Assembly (NCBI RefSeq): GCF_020085105.1
Contig: NC_058043.1
Coordinates: 7,197,667-7,261,666, forward strand
From: Siniperca chuatsi
Lineage: Eukaryota; Chordata; Actinopteri; Centrarchiformes; Sinipercidae
Direction: 5' to 3'
DNA length: 64,000 nt
The stretch's first letter is position 1. Each line of letters opens with the position of its first letter. Below the pieces are notes generated by a model that worked only from the letters and a program-made list of their open reading frames with translations, was not told the DNA's origin and made no database searches. Of this stretch, positions 14,274 through 57,700 are shown in pieces. The position numbers were made by a program, and so were the translations under genes.

Positions 14274-17200
14274 ATGAGCACGACGGGGCAGCAGCAGGCG
14301 GGGGGGCTGCGTTCTCGCCGAGGCCTTGGCCGGGACAAGGACCCTGGGCAGGGCATGGGCATGGAGGCGGCCTGCTGGCTGGCCCCCGGAGTGCTGCGCA
14401 GGCTGATAGAGCTGCCCTCACCCCCCCTGTCCCGACACCAACTCAAGAGACTGGAGGAGCACAGGTAACACTGATCCCTTAAGTAAAACTTTATCTTATG
14501 TGGGGTTATTTAATATTATGTGATATGTATGGAACTGTACAGTAATGCCCAGAGGTTAAGCAGTCTGATCAGGATGGGTTCAGTGTGCGTTGAGTAGCTG
14601 GCGTCATATGTGGCTATATGAAAGGGGTGTTTGTGACATCATCAAGCTTTGTCAGAGTGGACTTTTCAAACTTGTTGTTCTTGTCGTTTAAATTGTGATT
14701 ATGTTCTACAAATTAAACTCCCGGCCTGTTTTTGTGGTCTACACAGTTTGAAACAAGATATGATTGTATTTTCACAAACTTAACCTGATTCAACTTGAAT
14801 AGAATTAAGTAAATTGATGCAGTTGTTTTATTGTTTCAGTCCTTCAAGAGTCAGTCAGAGCAACTGACCACTTCAGCTCACATTTATTAAGATATTACAT
14901 AATATTACTCAGTGATATTCAAATATGAAATTCAGAAGTGGCATTATATTTATTGATAACAGCAGCACAGTTGTCCAGTTGTGGTCAAAATAAAAAACTG
15001 CTGGTATGTCAAGTCTGACAATGATTTCAACTGTTGATGGCTCTGCTCTGTAGCTGCTTGAGCTAACGTTAACTTCACAGTTCTGAATCTGAGTCCTCAA
15101 TTCAGAGCGTTTAAGGTAATCAGTTTAAAACAATAAGATGTGATTAAAAGTTTAACAGGAGATTCTGACATTTCTGTTTGTTAGCTGTCTGTCATTTACA
15201 CTCAACAACTGCACAGCTACGTGCTACCTGTCTGAAATTGATTTGAGGTGATCACCTAAATTATTTATGTAGAAAAAGATTTGCCACTCTGGTCTTTTTT
15301 GAACAACCTCATGTATTCAAACATTAAAATCATACAGAACGCAATTCTTCTTTAACATCTTTGGCGGAGTGTAAATGTACAGACAGTAACCAGACAACAG
15401 ACAGGCTTTACTTTTTTTTTCCTTATGCAAACTTACAGGATTAACCTTGATTATGAACAGCTGAGGCGACAGTTTTCATTGTAGCTGCAGTTTCATTGTA
15501 GCTGATGAAATCAATGGTTGCCGGCTTGAACTGTCACTTGCTACTGCTTGTTAAGGCACTGTTGATTATGTAAGTTAGAATTCACATTTTCGGTATTAAA
15601 AGCAATTGTTCAGCCCTAATGAAAGTCAACAGCAGTCATATTAATTATCACCCAGCCCTAGATTCCAATATCATCATTATTTCTGGTCCTTCCTGGGGGG
15701 GCAGGTAAATCTCCAGGGTAAAGTCATCATGTCCTCACCTGGTTGTTGTCCGTTCCTGCAGGTACAGCAGTGCTGGACGCTCCCTGCTGGAGCCACTGAT
15801 GCAGCGTTACTGGGAATGGTTGGTGGGACGAGTCCCTTCCTGGATTGCCCCCAACCTCATCACCATCATCGGCCTGGCTACCAACGTCTTCACCACCCTT
15901 GTGCTCATCTATTACTGCCCAACTGCCACTGAACAGGTTAGTCATCATTCTCAAACAACGTTATACTGGACGGTCTTTCATTCACTTATTAACTCCAGCT
16001 GCTTCCAATTTGTTTTTTTTTTATATGTATTAAGCTACTGCAAATGTTTCCTGTTACCAGGAAAGGGTGCCTCCCTTATGAGTTTTGAGTCGCTGAAAGG
16101 ATTTTTAATGTGAAACATCTGCAGGAAGTTTTTATGTAGCTTGACAGTGATTTCAAACTACGGCCAAAGGAGAGGAAATTAGAATTCATTCATGAATAAA
16201 AACAGTATTTTTGTTAAAAAGAGAGTGAAAGCAGCAGAGTAGTGCGTAATATGAAGTAAGAAAACAGGGAGGCCTATATGATCAAATATTGGGGAATTAG
16301 AAATAAAGGCCTGGTTTCAAAACTAAATAATCAAATACAAAATGGGGTTTGGAGATTTGCTTAAAGTAAAAAATAGTTGGCTGCTTCACTCCAAATAAAA
16401 TCTTTTGGAACAGCTCACCTGTGCGTAATGCAAGATCAGTGAATGAACGTATCCAGCTGTGTGTAAAATACGCAGGATTTTGGAGAGGTCTGAGTGTGAT
16501 CCTCTTTCATCAAGTTGGTCTGAGCAAGCGGATATGCAAGTGAAGCCTCCACAGGCTGCATGTATCACAGTGTTGCTGTTTATTGACAGTATTTATCAAT
16601 AGCTATTTCCCCCCAGCCGTCGTGGGCCCTGAGCTTTTGTCTATACTGCCCAGCATCCGGCTCTGGGCATATTTGATTACAGGGGAGGTCACTGGTCTTA
16701 TTTTAATGGTGCAGTTCTGTGTAACAGACCTCCAACACAACAACGACAAGGGACCCCTGATTTGTCATAGCGGGTCTGTGGTAGAAAATAACTGAAATGT
16801 ATATGTAAAATTGCCGAATCACTGTTAAATAATCTGTTAAATAACTCAAACGGGGCATTGCAACCTTTTTAACGTGAGAGAAGATTGAGTCCACATGGCA
16901 CCCTGGGGGGTATATCTAGGCTATTGACGGGGGGGGGGTTATCAAGCAGACCCTATGCAGCCTGGGATGTGTGTCTTTAATACTACATTCATTTAAAGGT
17001 TCAGTGTGTAGGATTTAGTGGCATCTAGTGGAGAAATTGCAGTTTGCAACCATTTAAACACCGCTCACCTCACCCTCCCCTTCCAAGCATGTAGGAGAAA
17101 CTACGGTGGCCGCAAAACTTGTGAAAAACATAAATGGCCCTATCTAGAGCTGGTGTGTGGTTTGTCTGTTCTGGGCTACTGTAGAAACATGGCAGTCCAA

Positions 17201-20200
17201 CATGGAAGGGGACCCTCTGTAGAGAAAAAGAGCTCATTCTAAGGTAACGAAAAACACAACGATTCTTATTTTCAGGTGATTATACACTAATGAAAACATA
17301 CTTATAAATATTATATTCAATTTCTGCCAATACCTCCTCCTAAATGTTACATACTGGACCTTTTAAGTTCAACGGAGACTGACCAGAGAGTGTTTCTTTA
17401 TGCATCTATTGATGTCACCTGATCTGAAGCAGCTGGCTCTGAAACTGGAGTTTATTCGCTTTAGCTGTATGTTTGCAGGCTTTGCGGTAGAGTGACTCCA
17501 GCTCCATATGAATGTGTGTTGTTTCAGGCTCCTCTCTGGGCATACCTGCTGTGTGCTGTGGGTCTGTTTATCTACCAGTCATTGGACGCCATCGACGGGA
17601 AGCAGGCCAGGCGCACCAATAGCAGCTCTCCGCTGGGCGAGCTGTTTGACCACGGTTGTGACTCCCTCTCCACCGGTCAGTGTTTCCTGTTTGATGTCGT
17701 TCCACTGTGTCTCAGTGAGTCTGAAGCCCTCTTTAACACTGCCTGTGTTCATGCGTTTGTGTCGACAGTGTTTGTGGTGTTGGGAACCAGTATAGCAGTG
17801 CAGATGGGTACCAACCCGGACTGGATGTTCTTCTGCTGCTTCGCCGGGATGTTTATGTTCTACTGTGCCCACTGGCAAACATATGTGTCGGGAACGCTGC
17901 GCTTTGGCATGTGAGTCGACAAAAGCTGCCTGGCTTCGTGTTTTTTTGTTTTAGTTTTAGTTTTGTTTTTTAAAGCAAGAAAGATTATTTCCAACCATTT
18001 GGCTGTTAAGTACGCTCATCAATTACGTTACAATTCAGTCCTTATCAGGTCTGAGTGTTATTTGCTGCCACCAATATGATACCTGAGTTTCAGTACTGAT
18101 ACCTAAAACGTGTTTTCCTACTTTTTTCCCGCATTTATCAACAAAAAAATCCAAATACATATCAAATAGATCAGTATTTAATGTTATCTAAAGACAAAAA
18201 CCAGTAGAATAAATGTGTCTAAATATAATGAGCAGAGTGGTGATCAGGAAATATCTGAAAAAAAAGTAAAAAGACTTCCAACACAGTTCAGTCTTTACGC
18301 ATGGATGCCTGAGTTCTTACAGTCAGCACTGTCACCTTTATGTCCACCGGACGCAGTTCAACGGCATCACAGCTGCCAAGCGTTAACAGCTCGGTGCCTC
18401 TCAGCGTTTTGGTGTTTTCTTGGTTTGTCTTAGTTTTCGGTGCTGTGGTTCTATATTATTAAGAAGAAGACTACCTAAAGCAGTATTATTATATGCACTA
18501 ATTCATTCACTCAAGTATATTGGCAAAGTCAGTGACACCTGTAAGTTTGGCAAAGCCAACTAAAAGCATGAATGATAGTGGAGTGCTGACAAAAGGACAT
18601 TGAAACATTGAGTTAAGTTAAATGAGTTAAGTTTATCCAATTTTAAAAACACATTTTGTTCACTTTATTTATTAAAAAGTGGATCAGCTAGTTATACTTT
18701 AATGTTTTCATTAGATTATAGTGGTTACATGTGCTGGTGAGCTGGCGTAAACGTGGATGTATTCTGTGTGTAGATTTGACATAACAGAGGTGCAGATCTG
18801 TCTAGCAGGATTACAGATGCTCACAGCCACTGTGGGTCCCTGCCTGTGGAACATGATGGTAAACCTCCTGGCTGTTGCTGCATGGCTCACTGCTGCCTCC
18901 TTCCACAACGACAGCTGACCTCCTTGGAGTCACATGGAGAATTTAAATCCACAGTCTGTTCTGCTTAAAGGTGCAGTCAGTGAAATACAGCTCTTTCAGC
19001 TGAAGGAAACTGAATGATTTCTGCTAAAACTCCCAATGTTTTTTTTTGCAAATTCTAAATTGGGATTTGACTTTACTTGACATTACTAAAGTAGACTCTG
19101 ACAAATGTTCATGTCACGGAGTAGAGACTGACACAGGTGACTTCAGCCAGCAGGAAACTCTAAAGTAGGAGTACTAAAAGTTTCATCTTTGCATTTAATT
19201 CCAAACACCACCAAGACGACGATGAGACACCTGCTGAATGTTAGTGAATAACATACTATGTTACATCACCTAGCCAGGTCACCCACCTGTCAAGACAGGA
19301 TGATTTGCTGCTTTTCTCTTTTATATCATCATAAAGTGAATATATTTGGGTTTTGAACTGTTGGTCAGTCAAAGCAAGCAGTTTCTCCTTTGCTCTGGAA
19401 AACTTGGACAGCCTTCACTAATTTCTGATGTTTCATAGATTAAACTATCACTTTAAATAAAAATAATAATCAAGATTCATTGATAATGAAAATATTTGTG
19501 TATTTCTTTATGCCTGATCAGAAAGGTTTAAGGAAACAGTCAACATTTTGGAAAATACACTTATTCTGTCTCTTTCTGAGAGTGAGGTGTGCAGATGACA
19601 GTCAATCTCATGTCTGTGTGTTCAGTACAGATGTGGTTAGCCTAGCTTAGCATAAAGACTGGAATCAGGGGGGAGCAGCTAGCCTGGTTCAAAACAACAC
19701 CTACCAACACCTCGAAAGTTAGGTTATTAACACATTGTATCTTGTTTGTTTAATCCGCACACAAACAGAAATGTAAAAACGTCTCCTCTGGTTGCCTGGA
19801 GACCTAATAGTGATGATGAGACTCTAAAATATATCAGCAGTCATTGAGGGCACAGAGACAGAGTCCTTTTTGTTAAAAGAGCCAGTGGAATATTACTGAT
19901 TGCATCTTTAATGCCGCATATTTCCGTTTGAATCTTTAACCAAATTAAACTTGTGTAGTGCAGAAGAACACAACAGCGTCTCATCAGCTCCATGTCCAGC
20001 ACTGTGTTGTGGAAGAAGGCTGTAGGACAACGGTGTGCTGGTAGACGTCACTAATCCTCACTGTAAACTCTCTGCTTTCTCCTCCCACTCAGCATTGATG
20101 TGACTGAGGTGCAAATCTTCATAATAATCATGTATTTGCTGGCCGCCGTGGGAGGATCTGCTTTTTGGCAGTCACTGGTAATTGTGATGGTTCTAATTCC

Positions 20201-23200
20201 TACAGATTGAGAGTAATGAGACTGATGATGTCATAATTATGTAATGATGTTTATGTTGTTACTTAAAATGCTGCTCTAACATTCTTGTTGTTGTTGTTTT
20301 TACTATAATTGTTATCAGAAATACAAAGAATGTCACTCTGAACGCTTTTACCATTCTCTAACATTACTCATGATGCTTTCATTGTGGCTGTAAAGGTGAA
20401 TGCACTTACAAATTACAAAAATAGCTGGAAAATTATAGTATGATCAACAAACCTTTTGATGTAAATGTCTGTGTTGTATTATCATTCCTTAATTTTAGTG
20501 TTTTAATGTCTTGATTTGTAGATTCCGATCCTAAATATCCAGATGAAAATGGTTCCTGCCATCTGCACTTTTTTAGGAGCCATCTTCTCCTGCACCAATT
20601 ACTTTAGAGTTATTTTTACAGGAGGTGTGGGCAAAAACGGATCCACAATAGCAGTAAGTCTGGAAACTTCAGCACTTCCCCTGATAAGTTGTCCTGTCTC
20701 CTATTGTTTCATCACAGATAAATCAGTGTAGAAATGCCTCCAAGCAACATTGATGTGCGCGCATGCAGCGGGTAGAAAACAAATGACCAAGAGCTTATGG
20801 GGAGAGGAGTTGTTGTTTTTGTGCCATAACCTGCACGAATCACAAAAATAATGGGTGGGAAATATTCGATATCCCAAGAGGGAAACCTCCCTGTTAGCTC
20901 AGAGTGCATAATTAGGTATTAGCATCTAGTGATCATGGTGGATAGTTTAGCATAGAAACTGGTGAAGAAGAAAAGACAGCTCGCATTGTTACTGTGTGTT
21001 TATGGCTGTTTAATGAATATATTCTTATATGTAGACGCAATACCACTCTATCGTTTTGATATTAAGAAAATAGAGTGGACAGCTATACAGCAATCATTCA
21101 AATATTATCTTAAATGTTATGGTACTTTTGAATGTAATTCAATGGGTCCATTTGACCCCCTCCCAGGCAGTCCAGGATCAAACACTTAACTGTATAAACA
21201 TAATGTGCCAGTACCAGCTCTACTGTATGTTTCTACTGACATTACCATCTGTGTCTTTGTTGTGTTTTGTGTCTCTGTCCTCAGGGAACCAGCGTCCTCT
21301 CTCCAGTCTTACATATTGGTTCAGTTATAATTTTGGCGATGATGATATACAAAAAGTCTGCTGTCCAGCTCTTCGAGAAACATCCGTGTCTTTACATCCT
21401 GGCGTTTGGCTTCGTCTCGGCCAAAATCACCAATAAATTAGTTGTAAGTCAAACCTACTTTTTATAAGTGGGAAGTGAAACATACTGCTGTGGTCACAGG
21501 AATAAGATCTAAAAATGGAAAAACTTTTTATCATCTAATAGTCCATACTAACTAAATTAATATGGTAATGAATATGCTCTGTGTTTCTGTGGTTTCTGCT
21601 TAATCCTGGAAAGGACAGATGTTCTTAATCACGTCAGAAGAGTTTAGTGAAACAGTTCACTGCCAAATTGTTCTCCTAAGTGCTAAGTTAGAGCTAAAAA
21701 TTAAAGCTAAAATTAAAAAGTTAAGTGCATTCTGACATTTTTTGAGTTTTGTCTCTGTGAGTCCGGTGTAGAGATCCAGGACGTGTTTAGTGTAGCTAAG
21801 TACAAATACTGGAAGGAGAGGAAACTGTTAGCTTAGCTCCATCAAAAGAGAAGAAATCCCCTTCCAACAAATCCAAAGCTGTCTGATTTATTTAGCTTTA
21901 CCAGGTTAAAATTCTTCAAATTTGGCAAAAACGTGTGAACTTGATACCAACAGGGTGTAAACTGTGATTAGGCAAATAGAGGCCACACCAAATATACCAA
22001 ATATTGAGCAATTTTAACATTTGCTAAACTAATCTAACCAAATGAAACAACAGTTCTTGGTAGAGGACTTAGACTATTGTTCATATCATACACGATATGT
22101 GACCGTTGACAAAGTTAGCGACTACCTGGTGGAGAAAGTGGAACATTTGGCAAAAGACAATAATGAGACTTTTTGCTTGTTTTCTCTAATTTAACCTGGT
22201 ACCTTTTCAACTGGTTTGCATCTTTATTTTCAGTTTGCAGTTGACCATGTTTTTCCCACATTAGTGATCATGACTTTGAGTTGAGTTAACTTTATTGCCA
22301 TCGCAACAAAAGTTGTTGGGAACTGAGTTCACAGTGCAAACAGGACAACATTCAACTTAGCATACTGATAACCGTCATATTAAAAAACATTAAAATACAC
22401 ATGATGCCAAAAATGTAAAAGATGCGTTAAAAACAAAATGTACTTTACAGTGCCATACAGTGGTTTACCATTCAAGAGTCAAACAGCCTTAAGGAATCTT
22501 TTGAACCTCGCAGATTTAAAGCAGAGTTGTCGATAGCTCCTCACACAGAGGGCATTTCCTCACAGAGGGGAGACGCTGGGTGAGAATCATCTCTAATTTT
22601 GTTCAGTACCTTTTGGTGAAGCTGAAATTAACATGAACAAAGAGATGGGAGGGAGCAGCCAGTAATTTTAGATGCAGTCTGAACTGTTTTCTCTAATGCA
22701 TCCGTTTCAGCACTGGTTACCAAATCAAAATGTGACATAGAAAGTTTCCACAACTTATGTGTAAAACTGGAACTTAACTTCCCTTCAAACAGCTTTAAGA
22801 ATTTGTAATTTTCAAATTTCCATAAATTAAAACAGTTGTGTTTGATGCTGACTGTGTGTGGGGTTTTTGTCTTTCCACAGGTAGCACATATGACAAAAAG
22901 TGAGATGCATCTCCACGATTTAGCCTTCCTGGGACCAGGACTACTGTTCCTGGATCAGTATTTCAATAGTTTTATTGACGAGTACCTGGTGCTGTGGATT
23001 GCATTGGTAAGTACACGCATGATGCAAGCTTTAAATAAGTATATTCAGTAGTGGTGTGTGTATATATAGAGTATATATGTAGTCAGTTAGGTCATGTTTA
23101 ATCAGTGATGCTGATATTTACTCAGTCAGTGTTACGTTTTCACAGTGATGGTTATGTGTAGTATGGAAGAAAGAAAATAATATTTTAAAAGTTAGGAATG

Positions 23201-24018
23201 AGAGAAAATTAAAATACTCATGGTATTCAAGGTAAAATTATGAGACACAAAGTCAAAATGATGAGATAGTAAATTACAATTATTAAACTACAAGATGCTA
23301 AGTCAATTATGAGGTAGTGAGTTAGTTTTTTAGACTAGGACATACTAAGTCAAAATAATGGGGCTGAAATACTATAATATATAATTGAAATTGGAGATAC
23401 AAAGTTTGTTATGACATACCAGGTCAAAATAGAGATAGACTAAAACATTAGTCGGTAAATCAAAATTATTACAGATGAAGTCAAAATTATACTTAAAATA
23501 CAAGTCAGAAGTACGAGACTATGAGATACTGAGCATCCAAACCACATTATTTTGACATTGTAAAAATCCAAATCCAAATCCAAATTACGAGATACTAACA
23601 AATACTACTACTATACTAACAATTATGAGACTGACAAAGTTAAAATTATGACATTATAAAATTACTAAATTGTAATTATGACATCAAGTCAAAAGAATGA
23701 TTTTATACATTGAAACCATGAGATAGTAAATCAAAAGAGATAGCACATCAGAACCATAAAATGGTGAACATTTAAACATGCTAAAGTTAAAACATCACTT
23801 CTTTTTCTTTTCCTGTCAGTTATGTGTTTCCACCGTGTGCAGAGCGCCTGTTTTTCTGCTTGAAAAGAGTGATGGTGTTTCTTTCTCTCCTGCAGATCAT
23901 TTCCTTTTTTGACTTGGTGCGTTACTGTGTCAGTGTTTGCAACCAGATTGCCTGCCATCTTCACATTTTTGTTTTCAAAATCAAGCCTTGTTCATTGCTC
24001 AGTTCAGCTCCTCACTGA
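14274..24018 (+). CDS. cept1: Choline/ethanolaminephosphotransferase 1
   Basis: Coding exons: 14274-14464, 15762-15936, 17528-17675, 17769-17910, then either 18774-18858 or 20093-20177, then 20522-20653, 21285-21443, 22881-23006 and 23896-24018. All phases join and either version gives 426 aa (human about 416). The enzyme transfers phosphocholine or phosphoethanolamine from CDP to diacylglycerol, the last Kennedy-pathway step, in ER/nuclear membranes. The CDP-alcohol phosphotransferase motif DGx2ARx8Gx3Dx3D is intact: D145, G146, A149, R150, G159, D163, D167. About ten hydrophobic helices follow the family pattern. From [14 protein letters not shown] to the end it reads closest to human CEPT1 rather than CHPT1 (for example [26 protein letters not shown]). 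The start ATG gives MSTTG, matching the in-register human MSTTG. Whether this is cept1a or cept1b cannot be told. Confidence 0.95.
16996..17362 (-). mobile_element. Harbinger-type MITE, inverse copy, in cept1 intron 2
   Basis: This is the same family as 1127-1495 in reverse. Ends are AAGGTTCAGTGTGTAGG and TACATACTGGACCTT, with TTA at both flanks (16993-16995, 17363-17365). It contains the shared 'cccctccccttccaagcatg' and 'taaggtaacgaaaaacacaa' motifs. It is non-coding. Confidence 0.7.
18774..18858 (+). CDS. cept1: cept1 alternative exon 5a
   Basis: This 85-nt exon (acceptor TGTGTGTAG, donor ATG|GTAAAC) encodes the rest of residue 219 plus 28 residues: FDITEVQ, then a hydrophobic segment with [13 protein letters not shown], ending NMM. 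It has the same length, entry phase and exit phase as 20093-20177 and has no stop. It aligns residue for residue (F/I-D-I/V-TEVQI ... VG..xxW) but has a different membrane segment. Because 85 is not a multiple of three, using both or neither would shift the frame. It is most likely mutually exclusive with 5b. A decayed duplicate is possible but unlikely given the intact signals. Confidence 0.75.
19530..19808. mobile_element. Half copy of a palindromic fold-back MITE
   Basis: The sequence from 'gtcaacattttggaaaatac' through 'agcctagcttagcataaagac' to 'ggttgcctggagac' matches one arm of the fold-back element seen complete at 28223-28800. It sits between the two alternative cept1 exons. Confidence 0.55.
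20093..20177 (+). CDS. cept1: cept1 alternative exon 5b (canonical)
   Basis: The 85-nt exon (acceptor CCCACTCAG, donor CTG|GTAATT) encodes [21 protein letters not shown] then SAFWQSL. This is near identical to the corresponding stretch of human CEPT1 ([21 protein letters not shown]), so it is the conserved, canonical version. It supplies the fifth predicted membrane helix, next to the catalytic helices. Confidence 0.92.
22265..22700 (-). mobile_element. Degenerate non-LTR retrotransposon 3' region
   Basis: 'ttgagttaactttattgccatcgcaacaa' followed by a stretch like 'gagtcaaacagccttaagg...tttgaacc' and 'cacagaggggagacgctggg' resembles, in reverse, the 3' end of common fish LINEs. It is heavily decayed and lies in cept1 intron 7. 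Confidence 0.35.
23190..23760 (+). repeat. cept1: Degenerate AT-rich minisatellite in cept1 intron 8
   Basis: Many imperfect ~20-22-base units of the form 'aaaattatgagatactaagtc' follow each other for about 550 bases, with heavy divergence between units. It resembles the interior of the element at 26275-27482. Confidence 0.55.
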
Positions 24019-31821: not shown

Positions 31822-32575
31822 ATGTGGTGGTTCCAGCAGGGTCTGTGCTTCCTGCCCGCAGCGCTGGTCGTCTGGACGGCGGCGTCCTTCGTCTTCGCTT
31901 ACATCACAGCGGTGGTGCTAAGACACGTGGATCCTGTGGTGCCTTACATCAGGTCTGAGACTCGACACACACACACACACACGTCTTCTCTGAGGTCTGT
32001 GTGTCCGGCAGATTGGTTTCCATATGTAGAATTAATTCGGCCTGCACACCTTAAAATGAGCGAATTTGTAATATTGCATTTATTGTTTCTTTTTAAATGT
32101 AGCTGAAAGCTACAACAAATGTATTATTTGTAATAATGTAATGTATATTAATTGGCCAGTTGTTTAGTCAAACAAATCTTAGGAAATAGTTAAAAATCCA
32201 GATTGCAATATTTTAGAGCACAAGGTGATTAATTGACTGTTCGCTAAACCCCGCCCCCCTTTGTTACTGTTGCGATGCCGCTCAATCTCTGTTCTGGCAC
32301 AGCATATGCAGTTTACAATGATAACAGAGGCAGATTTATCACTGAAATTTATAGTCATTTTTTTGAAACAATGGGTCCTTGATTTGAGACAGACGTAAAC
32401 AAAAGCAGCTTCTCATTTTTAGGTTTATGGTACATGAGTCTTTCCAGTTCAACAAAATGAGCCAAACTTCTCTTTAATGAACTTTGTTATGTGTTGCAGT
32501 GACACAGGAACCATGGCACCAGAGAGGTGTGTGTTTGGCATCATGCTGGATGTGTCAGCCTTTTTAGGTAACGTG

Positions 32576-32626
<51 letters not shown>

Positions 32627-35600
32627 CGTGAAACTACATTGTGTACAACCATCTCCTTCAGTGTCTGTCTGGGAGGATTTGGTTTGCTTCCTTCAGTGTG
32701 ATCTTCTCAAGGATCAAGTTCTTAATTTGTCAAATGCACAAAAAATTACAGCCGTGGAATTCATTAATTAATTCCAATCAATGAATCAGGGCTAAATTTG
32801 TGTGTTTGTAGGTATGGCGACGGTGTACGTGCGCTACAAACAGGTGGAGGCTCTGGCAGGTGAAGAGGTCAGACTCGACAGACTGAACCGCGTTGGGCTG
32901 TTGCTCGGCTTCATCAGCTCCTTCGGGATGTGTGTGGTCGCCAACTTCCAGGTGAGTGCTGCTGGTCCTGGATCGGTTCACACCTGTACGGTGTGTGAAG
33001 TGTTGAACGTGTCAGCAGTGAATCTGTGTGTTTGTGTGTGTGTGTGAGAGCAGAAGACCACGCTGTTCTCCATGCACCTGGTGGGGGCGATGCTGACCTT
33101 CGGGGTCGGGGCTCTCTACATCCTGGTTCAGACGCTGCTCTCGCTCTACATGCAGCCTCACATCCACAGCAAGAGCACCTATCTGGTCCGCCTCGGCATC
33201 GGAGTCTGGACCCTGAGCAGCATCATCAGCAGTATCCTTTAACATGGTGGCAGCTGGAAACACAAGAGCTCAGCTGTGATGGAACAAGAGTTGATTTAAA
33301 CCAGAGTCGGTAAGAGCAGCGTTGTAGTGAGACCATAATTACTCAGTAATTAAAGTTGTTTTATTATTTTCTGTTTTAAAAACTTTTAAGAACCTGTGAG
33401 GCTTTGGTTCTACAAACCAGAACGTTTGGATATGTCATTAAAAATGCGACACAGGAACGTTAGTTGTGGGACAGATAGCAATAGTAGAAGCAGCGCTCGT
33501 ATTGTTTTTCTTTTACATTTATATGTAATGACATTTAAACATCAGTATCATTAAGTTAATGGAAGGACTGTACTTGCAGTAAACAGAATGGATTAATAGA
33601 TAAGTTGCTGTAGTGGAAAAGGCCAGTAACTTAACTCCCCGAGAGGACCTGCCCACTGGGGAGCTCCCCCAAGAACTACATACCTTCAAGGGCCCTTTTT
33701 TATGTTTGCATTTGCACCGCCAATAGGAACGCTGAAGTGATGTAAGCCGGCTGGCAGCTGGTATTGGTCTGGACACGTCACTCAAGGTTCCTCCTGTGCT
33801 GGGAGAGTAAAACTGGAGTTCCCAGTTTCTGCAGTGTGGACACAATAAAAAGGGTGCGGGGTCCTCGAACTGTTTATACAACAATGACAAAGTTCCTCTG
33901 GAGAAATGCAACGCCTCGTTTGCAACATGGCAAACACCACAATTAATAATGTTCCAGTGTCACCGTTTTAATGATGTATATTTGAAAAGTTGTGGGTAGT
34001 AAAATACAATGGAAACAAGGCAGAACCTAGAACCAAAACCTTAAAGGTTCTTAAAAGTTCAGAAGTAATGGGAAGCTCAGACTTATGGGTTGTTGAGTTC
34101 CTTTAAGTGAAAAAGGCCTGCGTCCCTCATGACGGGTCAGCTGCCAGTCCGGCTCTCTCTCTCTGATCCATTCTGTAGAATCATGTTGGGGAAATGTAGT
34201 GTACTCCCCAACAATGTGCACACAGTTAAACCTGTATGTTCAAACACACTGCCCTTGCAGAGCTTAGCTAAACACGTTCTGTTGTATTAATGCCGTGTTG
34301 CCGAGCTGTGATCCTTAACAGCATCCTCTCCTGTCAGTGTTCATATCATCAGTCATCATGTACAGCAGTCTGCCGGGAGTGGACGTACCTCACAAACTGC
34401 ACTGGACTCCTGGAGAGACGGTCAGTAGTTCGATATAATATCCAAGTTTCAGTTCTGATACTAAAATGATACCTTATTTTGAGAAATAGAAACATAAGGG
34501 GTGTAAGCGGCACGTGTATTTGTCCCGAACCGTTCGGTATGCAACTTCCTCGGATCGGCCCAAACTATTACTGTCAAAATAGTCTGTTTATGTTGCCTAC
34601 TTGCACACGTGGAACAGAAATAGTCGGGTTTGTCTGTGGAAACACTTCAAATGCGTCATTTACGATGGCATCATCCAAATGTGTTGAACGAGACAGAAAC
34701 AGACTGGAAGGCGAGTCCTTCTCCCCTTCAAATCAATAACTAATGCTATAGGAGTGTTTATGTTCCTGCCCTGTATAAACCAGCGCAAGCTGCAGTTGTT
34801 CAGGAATTACTTATTGACAATATGACAGTATTTGAGTGCATTAACTGTTACAGTAAGAATCATGGCCAATGAAACTGTTGAGTGTTAACATTTTTCAAAT
34901 TAATTACAAAAATAAATGAGTTTTCCTGCTGTACCGAACCGTGAATTTTTGTGTACCGTTAACACGCCTAATAAACATGTTTCTAACTTGTCAGATGTTA
35001 AACGTTGTCTACACACAAGCAGCTGCACAAGAACTTTGTCTACATAATAAAATTACGCAGCTCTTTGCAGCAGCACAGCAACGTTTAGGTTTGTATCTTG
35101 TCTTTTTCAGGGCTACACGGCTCACATGATCAGCACCGTGTCTGAATGGTCTCTGGCCTTCTCCTTCATCAGCTTCTTCCTCACCTACATCAGAGATTTC
35201 CAGGTACTTCGTCTCATCTTTTCATCCACACTGCTTGTTGTTTTCTTTGTCATATTTACTATAAATGACGAAAAAGAAATTATCTGGCAGGTATCAACAC
35301 AGAATACATTCTGAAGTCACTCCAGCAAAGAAAATGTTATTAGTTTTATCTGTGTTTGTCCAGTATAGAGATACAGATTCATAAACTGTGCAGGTTAATG
35401 ACTTAACTGAAGTGTAAAGATGACAAGTTGCGGTTTAACAGGGTTATGTGTCAGCCGATTTCCTGACTGGACACAGTGACTTCCTTGAGTCTCCGCTCGT
35501 TGCCTGGCAACTTCATGGTGACAATAAAACTCCAGGAAGTCACTGCGCCTGGTTGTTGTTCGCCTAACTTCTCTTGAGACCACAAGTTGTTGTTGTTTTT

Positions 35601-47958: not shown

Positions 47959-48605
47959 ACCGCACCAGACAAGACCCAAGGTGTAGGCTGTGCAAAGAGG
48001 CCCTGAGACAATCCAGCACATAACTGCAGGGTGTAAGATGCTGGCAGGAAAAGCATACATGGAGCGCCATAACCAAGTAGCTGGCATAGTGTACAGGAAC
48101 ATCTGCACTGAGTATGGACTGGAAACCCCGAGGTCAAAGTGGGAAACACCTCCAAAGGTGGTAGAGAATGACCGAGCCAAGATCCTGTGGGACTTCCAGA
48201 TCCAGACTGACAGAATGGTAATGGCGAACCAGCCTGACATCGTGGTGGTTGACAAACAACAGAGGAAAGCCGTTGTGGTTGACGTGGCGATACCAAGCGA
48301 TGGCAACATCAGGAAAAAGGAACATGAGAAACTAGAGAAGTACCAAGGGCTAAGAGAAGAGCTGGAGAAGGCCTGGAAGGTGAAGGCAACAGTGGTACCC
48401 GTGGTCATTGGAGCACTCGGGGCAGTGACCCCCAAACTGGAGGAGTGGCTACAGCAGATCCCTGGAAGAACACCAGACATCTCGGTCCAGAAGAGCGCAG
48501 TACTGGGAACAGCAAAAATACTGCGCAGAACCCTCAAGCTCCCAGGCCTCTGGTAGAGGACCCGAGCTCGAAGGATGAGACCACCCGCGGGGGGTGAAGG
48601 ACAAA
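47957..48605 (+). mobile_element. 5'-truncated RLE-type LINE (R4/Dong/Rex6-like) 3' end
   Basis: The fragment encodes the C-terminus of a site-preferring non-LTR retrotransposon. A zinc-knuckle CRLC...H....C is followed by a restriction-like endonuclease core (QPD at about 48231-48239, then VVVDVAIPSD), closing with ...TLKLPGLW and a stop at 48554-48556. The CCHC plus PD...D arrangement is that of R2/R4/Dong/NeSL-type LINEs. One base is missing inside the zinc knuckle ('aaagaggccctgag', where GCCCCTGAG would be expected), so CRLCKEA and PETIQH lie in different frames; the remaining ~188 codons are open. The 3'UTR is about 45 bases. Both sides are (TA)n (47920-47956, 48617-48644), in line with the microsatellite targets of R4/Dong elements. 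It lies in the 5'UTR intron of the C6orf89-like gene, opposite strand. The clade is inferred. Confidence 0.8.
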
Positions 48606-54740: not shown

Positions 54741-57700
54741 GACCCCCGGGTGTTGGACGCCATGTTGCCCTACCAGGTGAATTACTACGGTAACCCTCAC
54801 TCCAGAACACACGCCTACGGCTGGGAGAGCGAGAGCGCCATGGAGACGGCCAGGAAGGTAGAGAGACACTCTGTCTGTACAGAGAGAGAGAGAGAGAAAA
54901 CGTTTTTTCAAAGTAAAATTCATATCATATATATATATATTTAGTAATTTTTTCATTACAGTGCACTGTGTAGTAATGTGTAAACCATTAGTTGTCCTTT
55001 ACTCTTTTATTTTTATATCTACATTGTAAACCTTGTATAATGTGCTGTGTATTTAGTTGTGGTCCTCACTTCATTAAATCTACATTTGAGAGAGAGACAC
55101 TGACTGTGTGTTGTCTCTCTCTGAGCAGCAGGTGGCTGATCTGATTGGAGCAGATCCCAGAGAGATCATCTTCACCAGCGGAGCCACCGAGTCCAACAAC
55201 ATGGCCATCAAGGTAACATTCTGCTCCTCCTCTGCGTTACCTCCTCTTCATCATGCCTCCCTCCACCTCTCACCACTACCTCCTCTTGTTTTGGTTCACA
55301 GTGAGAACAGGATGAAGGTCACACCAGAAATTAATCCGTGCGTCTTCGTGAAATATGTGGTTCTAGGATCTAGGTGACATAATGACTACTCGCTGGGCTA
55401 GTTGGTGAACTGCTAACATGCTAGCCAGGTGGGCTAGCACTAGTCAGTCACAATAGCTCTCCGAACTTCTCTCTATTTTCTCTGTACTGTGCTGTTTACT
55501 CCCCCCTGGCATTTTGTTCACCATTGTACACCCTTCAGTTCAATAAAAAGTTATTGAAGAGGCTAAGTAAAGACTTACTCATTTGCTTAGCTCAGTCGCT
55601 AACTAGAAAATACATTCACAGTTTATTCAAAAGACGTATTTGTGCCACCAACTTCCATCTCATAACTGTCTGCTAACCATTGCTCTTTTGTGGAACAGTT
55701 TATACTCCGACAGAGGATGTTAAATAAAACTGGATGGTGACACACAGCTACGATAGTTTCCTCCATTTTGGACTCTCCAGCAGCTCTCTGTTTCCTGAAA
55801 GGTCAGCAATGTAAAGACAGTTTGCTGTTGGTCATTGGCCTGAAATTCGGATGTCAAAGTTCACCCAAGTTGAACTTGAATTTGCCCAGATTTACTTTGT
55901 CCGCGTCAGAAAAGCCACTGATCGCAGCAAATCCATTGGAATGAATCAATTTCACCGCAAAAATTTCACCGTTTTAAATGCTGGTGTGACCATTCATACG
56001 AGAACCCATTAAGAACAGAATGAGATCACAGTGAGAACAATCAAAAGGGGAAAGTACAGTTAAAAAAACAACACTGAGTTAGAACCCAGTTTGTGATGTC
56101 AGTAGTGACCCTGCCTCTCCCTCACCTGCAGGGCGTGGCCAGGTTCTACCAGTCCAAGAAGCGTCATGTGATCACCACGCAGACGGAACATAAATGTGTT
56201 TTGGACTCGTGTCGAGTTCTGGAGGCCGAAGGATTCAACATCACCTACCTGCCAGTCCAGACGAACGGACTGCTGGACCTGGAGGTACACACGCTGCAGA
56301 GTGAACACGTTCAGCATGTACAGACAACATACACAAGTCATTGTATCTGTTAAAAACTGCGTATGTGTGTGTGTTCAGCTGTTGGAGGCCTCAATCCGTC
56401 CTGACACCTCTCTGTTGTCGGTGATGACCATCAACAACGAGATCGGAGTCAAGCAGCCCATCAAGGAGATCGGTAACTATGGCAACATGTTATTTACTCC
56501 CGGCGTTAGGCAGAAATCAGATTTCTGAAACATTTATATACACTGTGTCTCATCCATGTTACAGTGATTCAGAATAAAGCAGATCCCCACGTTGACCACG
56601 TACAGCCTTCACCAGATTAATTGACCTCTCCTCTTCCTGTCCACAGGTCAGATTTGTCGTTCTAAAGGAGTCTTCCTCCACACTGACGCCGCTCAGGCTG
56701 TCGGAAAGATTCCCATCAACGTCACGGACTGGAAGGTTGATCTGATGTCCATCAGCGGTCACAAGATCTACGGACCCAAAGGTTAGCCAGAGCATTACTG
56801 TAGATATACCCTTAACTGTTAGCCCATTAGGCAAGGCTACGCAGTTTATTTATACAGCACATTTCGTACACGTGGCAGTTCAAAGTGCTTTACAAATTGC
56901 ATAAAGCTAGAAAACGCTAAATGTTCTGAAGAAAATTTACATCTGCTTGCTGCTAAAATTTAGCACTTGTAACATGAAATAGCTGAAATATTGAAACAGT
57001 TAAAGTTGCAGTTGAAATACAAATACTGAAAGAAAACAAAATAGCAGATGAAAGAAGTTTAAGTGCAAGTTGTGAAATCATTCGAATTATTATTTGAAGA
57101 GTAAGACATCAAAGCAGCTGCAATGTCAGTTGTGTAAGCACTGAAAGCAGTTGAACTGTCAGTTGAAGAGATACAAATGAAAGCATTTGAAATGTAGTTG
57201 AAATTTCACTTGAACAAAAATCAGTCCAAGCGTCAATTGACATGTACGAGGTGAGAGCAGCTGAAGTGTCAGTGAAAGTGTAAGTTAATGAGACAGTTGA
57301 ATCTCCTGTGAGGCTGAGGAGCTGAAACCTACAGTGATGATGATGTCACACACCCTAGATTTGAACACAGTAATGTAAAAATCTGAGAAGGAGGTTGTTC
57401 TTAATGAGCGTAGCCAAGTGACAAAATGTAGCTTCCACATGATTTGTGTTGACAGTTGGAACAGTCGACAGACCAAAAGTCAGCGGACTTCAGTGTTGTA
57501 GAAGGTTCATACTGTAGTTACCACAGAGCTTTCTTTGGTAGATCTGAGAAAAGGCTGTTACAGTCGTCTGGCCTGCTCAAGATGAAGGCATAGATCAACT
57601 TTTTGAGATCATGTTGGCACCTTTACTAGATGATATAAGGCTGATGCTGTAACTGATTCTGAACTGCTGAGTCTGAGAGAACACCTAGATTTCTTACCTT

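What the first reader, a model, noticed from the sequence alone, without database searches (positions are those of the whole stretch)
18774..20177. Two mutually exclusive-looking versions of one membrane-helix exon in cept1
Exons 18774-18858 and 20093-20177 are both exactly 85 nt, share entry phase 2 and exit phase 0, have good splice sites and no stop, and align over all 28 codons (xDxTEVQI...VG..xxW). They differ strongly in the membrane segment ([13 protein letters not shown] versus [13 protein letters not shown]). Because 85 is not divisible by three, joining or skipping both shifts the frame, so splicing must choose one. The segment is the fifth predicted helix, beside the CDP-alcohol phosphotransferase core, so the choice could tune substrate preference (choline or ethanolamine head group, or diacylglycerol) or location. 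I do not recall this being described for vertebrate CEPT1. The 5a segment's GP..W pattern may recall invertebrate family members, which would make it an old exon.
Basis: partly seen in the sequence, partly recalled or inferred. Interest (0 to 1): 0.8.

Follow-up and report, generated by a model that had tools for sequence, protein, structure and literature searches.

The report
Alternative membrane-helix exons in fish cept1
A fish-like gene for an enzyme that makes the main membrane lipids appears to carry two interchangeable versions of the exon for one helix of its lipid pocket, so splicing could change which fats the enzyme accepts; no RNA was examined.

Summary
Window 18774-18858 (5a) and 20093-20177 (5b) are both 85 nt, AG/GT-bounded, open and phase 2-in/0-out, between cept1 exons 4 and 6. 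Of 122 open 85-nt AG..GT segments of that phase in the window, 5a alone resembles 5b (BLOSUM62 52; next best -3). It keeps 6 of 7 positions invariant in five relatives. Synonymous divergence is saturated; simulated neutral decay kept frame, splice sites and similarity in 4 of 20,000 runs, so 5a is probably selected. Including or skipping both exons gives an early stop. A probable chpt1 has one such exon and no 5a in the 9.9 kb examined. On published CEPT1/CHPT1 structures the exon is TM5, lining the acyl-tail chamber and diacylglycerol cleft; reported choline contacts lie outside it. 5a keeps Asp212, Val216 and Gln217 but has CLAGL for FIIIM at 219-223. Best reading: mutually exclusive tandem-duplicated exons that tune diacylglycerol selectivity or entry rather than head-group choice. 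No RNA reads and no other vertebrate genome could be checked. The kind is known; seven paper-library searches listed no report for CEPT1.

The parts
14439..14464 (+). end of the upstream coding exon of cept1 (QLKRLEEH plus two bases of the next codon)
   Evidence: translation, donor gtaaca read; its start was not determined
15762..15936 (+). cept1 exon 2
   Evidence: AG/GT and frame
17528..17675 (+). cept1 exon 3, with the CDP-alcohol phosphotransferase motif DAIDGKQAR...GELFDHGCD
   Evidence: Pfam PF01066 on the joined protein
17769..17910 (+). cept1 exon 4, exits in phase 2
18774..18858 (+). exon 5a, alternative TM5 ([28 protein letters not shown])
18879..18884 (+). TGCATG, an Rbfox-type motif 21 nt after the 5a donor (lead only)
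   Evidence: motif meaning recalled
18890..18909 (+). arm of an inverted repeat pairing with 20006-20025 (lead only)
20006..20025 (+). second arm of that inverted repeat, upstream of 5b (lead only)
20093..20177 (+). exon 5b, canonical TM5 ([28 protein letters not shown])
   Evidence: 22/28 identical to human CEPT1
20522..20653 (+). cept1 exon 6, enters in phase 0
21285..21443 (+). cept1 exon 7
22881..23006 (+). cept1 exon 8
23896..24018 (+). cept1 last coding exon to the stop codon

Best explanation
cept1 carries two mutually exclusive, tandem-duplicated exons for TM5. Shown: two homologous 85-nt exons, each joining in frame to exons 4 and 6; taking both or neither creates an early stop. Inferred: 5b, with stronger splice sites, is the default; 5a is used where an activator helps its weaker sites; frame shift plus nonsense-mediated decay removes wrong products. 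Inferred for the protein: both forms keep Asp212, Val216 and Gln217, residues at the polar end of the bound lipid and beside its tails, while 5a reshapes the acyl-tail chamber and the TM5/TM6 cleft (Phe219 to Cys, Ile220 to Leu, IIM 221-223 to AGL), giving a roomier, more CHPT1-like wall at 219. The choice would therefore tune which diacylglycerols are accepted or how they enter, leaving the CDP-choline/ethanolamine site largely alone.
For: Boundaries, phase and frames. Homology far beyond chance. 6 of 7 family-invariant positions kept. pS 0.75 against pN 0.41; neutral decay to the observed third-position divergence keeps open frame, splice dinucleotides and similarity in 4 of 20,000 runs. Double inclusion ends at the second codon of 5b, about 80 nt before the 5b/6 junction; skipping ends about 120 nt before the 6/7 junction. 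Structure papers place Val213/Val216/Phe219/Ile220 of TM5 round the acyl tails and Gln217 on the sn-1 carbonyl, cite V216A as lowering activity and altering diacylglycerol use, and propose diacylglycerol entry between TM5 and TM6 (PMC10156783; PMC10182977). Summed side-chain volume at 219-223: 853 cubic angstroms in 5b and human CEPT1, 648-702 in three CHPT1, 591 in 5a (volume table recalled).
Against: No RNA read or peptide was seen. No other species' cept1 could be searched, so conservation of 5a rests on a within-genome decay argument over 28 codons, and the simulation assumes 5a arose by copying 5b. 5a's splice sites are weaker, and no yUnAy branch-point match was found in the stretch upstream of it (exons 3 and 9 lack one too). 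5a keeps only 3 of the 6 named TM5 residues. 13 of its 28 residues are not seen at that position in any of five relatives. The Pfam match of the 5a isoform stops before TM5 (residues 2-113) where that of 5b runs through it (2-155), 46.6 against 48.6 bits. The CHPT1-like reading of position 219 rests on three CHPT1 and two CEPT1 sequences.
Confidence: 0.66

Rival explanations
1. 5a is a dead or dying duplicate of the TM5 exon that no longer enters mature mRNA.
For: Weaker splice sites; 13 of 28 residues of 5a are not seen at that position in any of five relatives, against 3 to 9 of 28 when each relative is held against the other four.
Against: Frame, both splice dinucleotides and 6 of 7 invariant positions survive saturated synonymous divergence; neutral decay keeps frame, splice dinucleotides and similarity in 4 of 20,000 runs.
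Confidence: 0.1
2. 5a is chiefly a poison exon: its inclusion beside 5b stops translation and lowers CEPT1 level, and its own coding content matters little.
For: Double inclusion gives a stop at the second codon of 5b.
Against: A poison exon needs no conserved Asp-x-Thr-Glu-Val-Gln, Gly and Trp, nor a length that restores frame when used alone.
Confidence: 0.1
3. The isoforms are real but the swap matters for stability, assembly or location (for example ER against Golgi), not for diacylglycerol selectivity.
For: TM5 changes along its whole length after the first eight residues; mean hydropathy of residues 218-234 falls from 2.34 in 5b to 1.59 in 5a, close to Xenopus CHPT1 at 1.64.
Against: The exon forms the wall of the acyl chamber and cleft in solved structures; the dimer interface is TM7/TM9, outside the exon.
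Confidence: 0.14

Closest known systems
Tandem duplicated exon substitution events (mutually exclusive homologous exons), 236 curated in human (PMC9741552: outline with abstract, and passages seen)
   Same: Adjacent homologous exons of equal length and phase, functional residues kept, likely old
   Different: CEPT1 and CHPT1 are not named in the main text of that paper (its supplement was not readable); terminal exons and voltage-gated channels are enriched there, here it is an internal TM helix of a lipid-synthesis enzyme
Human CEPT1, PDB 8gyw/8gyx
   Same: 5b is 22/28 identical; best match of the 5a-containing query too
   Different: 5a is 11/28 identical over this exon; the solved protein has the canonical form
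CHPT1 of Xenopus and human (8ero, 9uet) and a probable chpt1 of this genome (L013:6248-6332)
   Same: Same 85-nt exon and phases in the fish gene; small residue at position 219 as in 5a
   Different: A single TM5 exon in the fish gene; no 5a-like copy in the 9.9 kb examined

Membership tests
Mutually exclusive tandem-duplicated exons | Adjacent exons with homologous products | tested here: met
   BLOSUM62 52, next best -3 among 122 candidates
Mutually exclusive tandem-duplicated exons | Same length and phase, each joinable to the same neighbours in frame | tested here: met
   85 nt, phase 2 to 0, both isoforms open to the common stop
Mutually exclusive tandem-duplicated exons | Using both or neither is unproductive | tested here: met
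   Early stops about 80 and 120 nt before a later junction; decay itself is inferred
Mutually exclusive tandem-duplicated exons | Transcripts carry one or the other | not testable with these tools
   No RNA-seq available
Mutually exclusive tandem-duplicated exons | Conservation of both exons across species | not testable with these tools
   No other vertebrate genome held; within-genome decay simulation only
CEPT1/CHPT1 (CDP-alcohol phosphotransferase, class II) | DxxDGxxAR...GxxxDxxxD motif | tested here: met
   DAIDGKQAR...GELFDHGCD in exon 3; PF01066 46.6 (5a) and 48.6 (5b) bits, cut-off 22
CEPT1/CHPT1 (CDP-alcohol phosphotransferase, class II) | CEPT1 rather than CHPT1 or SELENOI | tested here: met
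   Exon 7 is 49/53 identical to human CEPT1 and 40/53 to human CHPT1, exon 6 37/44 and 28/44; exon 5b 22/28 and 12/28; best solved-structure match CEPT1

The most novel reading that the evidence does not exclude
An ancient splice switch, arisen before or about the CEPT1/CHPT1 split and kept in fishes or more widely, gives one Kennedy-pathway enzyme two acyl-tail chambers and so lets tissues change phospholipid acyl composition at the last step of synthesis.
Probability: 0.3. Interest if true: 0.75.

Novelty: new member of a known kind. Interest (0 to 1): 0.52.

Why it matters
How acyl chains of newly made phosphatidylcholine and phosphatidylethanolamine are chosen is mostly credited to acyltransferases that remodel lipids later (general knowledge). 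An exon switch in the wall of the diacylglycerol chamber would put part of that choice at the enzyme of the last step, under tissue-specific splicing, and offers a natural pair of proteins differing only there for structure and enzyme tests.

Tried and rejected
Chance match: rejected. A 5a-like exon in the probable chpt1: none found in the 9.9-kb locus; the intron before its TM5 exon is 108 nt if it starts at the gtaagt seen. A second cept1 copy: none seen; exons 3-4 gave five matches at three places, C2 (here), C23 (probable chpt1) and C16 (selenoi-like) (which scored only its best 4 candidates). The 5a DNA and a 37-aa 5a peptide matched only this place, but that peptide search did not report even 5b, so it is a weak test. 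The C23 gene is named chpt1 on weak grounds: exon 7 is 36/53, 35/53 and 34/53 identical to human CEPT1, human CHPT1 and Xenopus CHPT1, exon 6 22/44, 24/44 and 29/44. Residual homology of the introns beside 5a and 5b: none (local scores 18 upstream and 19 downstream against shuffle means of about 20). Head-group tuning: disfavoured on the structures. GP..W as an invertebrate mark: rejected. Dating by tree: not attempted, 28 residues are too few; 5a is about equally far from CEPT1 (10-11/28) and CHPT1 (9-11/28), which suits an old split or fast change. Tandem duplicates of cept1 exons 2, 3, 4, 6, 7 and 8 with the same length and phase: none in the window. Viral contigs searched with the exon-7 peptide for stray eukaryotic relatives: 34 pattern matches, no relative.

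Intron pairing as the exclusivity device: 140 nt after 5a against 193 nt before 5b gives -80.7 kcal/mol, 0 of 300 shuffles as low, but the stretches were picked after seeing the inverted repeat; among 15 pairs of 200-nt flanks this pair has the lowest z (-3.0, 1 of 100 shuffles as low), the next being 4 of 100. It pairs the two ends of the 5a-5b intron, so its effect on exclusivity is unclear, and covariation cannot be tested here. Kept as a lead.

TGCATG after 5a: 19 copies on the + strand of the 64-kb window give about a 3% chance of one within 100 nt; over both strands 35 copies are fewer than the 50 expected. GCATG also follows the donor of exon 8 by 11 nt, so the motif is not confined to 5a. 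Kept as a lead.

Literature: searches for CEPT1 + mutually exclusive exons (0 papers), CEPT1 + alternative splicing + exon, CHPT1 + mutually exclusive exons, CEPT1 + splice variant + zebrafish, ethanolaminephosphotransferase + mutually exclusive + exon, CEPT1 + MXE and CEPT1 + exon duplication listed no paper that by title or start of abstract reports this exon pair. Of those listed I opened one, PMC10825154 (passages): it names CEPT1 among sheep genes with differential splicing found by both of its tools, with no event type in the passages seen. A looser search (3,258 papers, 15 listed) listed none holding CEPT1. Most subscription papers and supplements were out of reach, and public fish gene models, which may already list both exons, were not visible.

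Full report
What is there. The gene runs on the + strand: the end of an upstream coding exon (QLKRLEEH, 14439-14464), then exons 15762-15936, 17528-17675, 17769-17910, two candidate fifth exons 18774-18858 (5a) and 20093-20177 (5b), then 20522-20653, 21285-21443, 22881-23006 and 23896 to the stop at 24018. Exon 7 is 49/53 identical to human CEPT1 and 40/53 to human CHPT1, exon 6 37/44 and 28/44. Exons 3-4 match three places: cept1 here, a probable chpt1 on C23 and a selenoi-like gene on C16. Two pieces matching the Frag1/DRAM family lie further along the window (below Pfam's cut-off); that DRAM2 adjoins CEPT1 in human is recalled.

The two exons. Both are 85 nt, have AG/GT borders, enter in phase 2 and leave in phase 0. 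Identity is 10/28, BLOSUM62 52, and 0 of 50,000 shuffles reach it; the last 20 residues alone score 20, reached by 27 of 50,000. A scan of the whole window, both strands, gave 122 open 85-nt AG..GT segments in this phase: 5b (137), 5a (52), and nothing else above -3. The same scan with six other cept1 exons found no second copy of any. A 37-aa peptide with 5a and its neighbours matches three sequences in the structure database, one CEPT1 and two CHPT1 (E 8.6e-6, 0.0039 and 0.0079). Against this, the Pfam match of the 5a isoform stops before TM5, that of the 5b isoform runs through it.

Is 5a kept by selection? Seven positions are the same in five relatives (5b, fish probable chpt1, human CEPT1, human CHPT1, Xenopus CHPT1); 5a keeps six and has Ile for Val at the seventh. 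Between 5a and 5b, pS is 0.75 (saturated) and pN 0.41; between 5b and the C23 gene, 0.66 and 0.25. Substitution-only neutral decay from 5b to the observed 18 of 28 third-position differences left frame, AG/GT and this level of similarity in 4 of 20,000 runs; at 14 differences it was 0.0044 and at 9 differences 0.078. Against this: only 15 of 28 residues of 5a are seen at their position in any of the five relatives, while each relative has 19 to 25 of 28 seen among the other four, so 5a is either old or fast-changing. Introns beside the two exons show no residual similarity. I read this as an old duplicate under constraint. Direct conservation across species could not be tested.

How the choice is enforced. 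4-5a-6 and 4-5b-6 both read through to the same stop. 4-5a-5b-6 stops at the second codon of 5b, about 80 nt before the next junction; 4-6 stops a few codons after the junction, about 120 nt before the following one. Both should be substrates for nonsense-mediated decay (established rule, recalled; not shown here). The 1,234-nt intron between the exons is too long for steric exclusion (general knowledge). 5b has the stronger sites. Two leads bear on regulation: TGCATG 21 nt after the 5a donor, a kind of place where Rbfox proteins are known to promote inclusion (recalled), though GCATG also follows the donor of exon 8; and a complementary pair joining the two ends of the 5a-5b intron. Neither is proof.

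What it would do. The modelled chain of human CEPT1 covers 28-407 (PMC10156783), so the exon spans residues 211-238. [quoted passage not shown] The Xenopus CHPT1 paper (PMC10182977, parts 1-2 of 4 read) also has the slit between TM5 and TM6, and places the choline group on Trp50, Phe186 and Glu43, all before the swapped exon; Phe186 corresponds to the F of TLRFG in exon 4, by the numbering. 5b keeps all six named TM5 residues; 5a keeps Asp212, Val216 and Gln217 and has I213, C219 and L220. Residues 219-223 are FIIIM in 5b and human CEPT1 and CLAGL in 5a; their summed side-chain volume is 853 against 591 cubic angstroms, with three CHPT1 at 648-702. Position 219 is Phe in the two CEPT1 forms and Ala, Ala or Ser in the three CHPT1. 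So 5a should keep catalysis and head-group binding while changing the tail chamber or the entry cleft. This step is inference; no model of the spliced isoform was made.

Novelty. Mutually exclusive tandem-duplicated exons are a known kind; 236 events are curated in human, most of them ancient, and three quarters of their isoforms tissue-specific (PMC9741552, abstract and passages). CEPT1 is not named in that paper's main text, and seven searches of the paper library listed no report for CEPT1 or CHPT1 (17 listings in all, repeats included, judged by title and start of abstract, one opened). Gene catalogues and supplements were not visible, so the exon may be annotated already in fish gene sets.

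Noticed in passing
window 18859-18998 and 19900-20092: Unusually strong predicted pairing between the two ends of the 5a-5b intron (-80.7 kcal/mol, 0 of 300 shuffles as low; stretches picked after seeing an inverted repeat). Could be chance, a decayed inverted element or a splicing device; a search for other copies in the genome did not complete.
   Followed up: partly
window 31840-31998 and 33054-33185: Open exon-like pieces matching the Frag1/DRAM family (E 3.8e-5 and 1.8e-5, below Pfam's cut-off), probably dram2.
   Followed up: partly
window 56172-56525: A piece ([32 protein letters not shown]) matching aminotransferase class V (E 1.5e-4, just below Pfam's cut-off); looks like nfs1 by eye.
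   Followed up: partly
window 47987-48553: A 189-aa open frame that looks by eye like part of a LINE-type retrotransposon protein; no Pfam match at E 0.01.
   Followed up: partly
L013 6248-6332: The probable chpt1 of the same genome has the same 85-nt TM5 exon with the same phases, which suggests that these exon borders predate the cept1/chpt1 split.
   Followed up: yes
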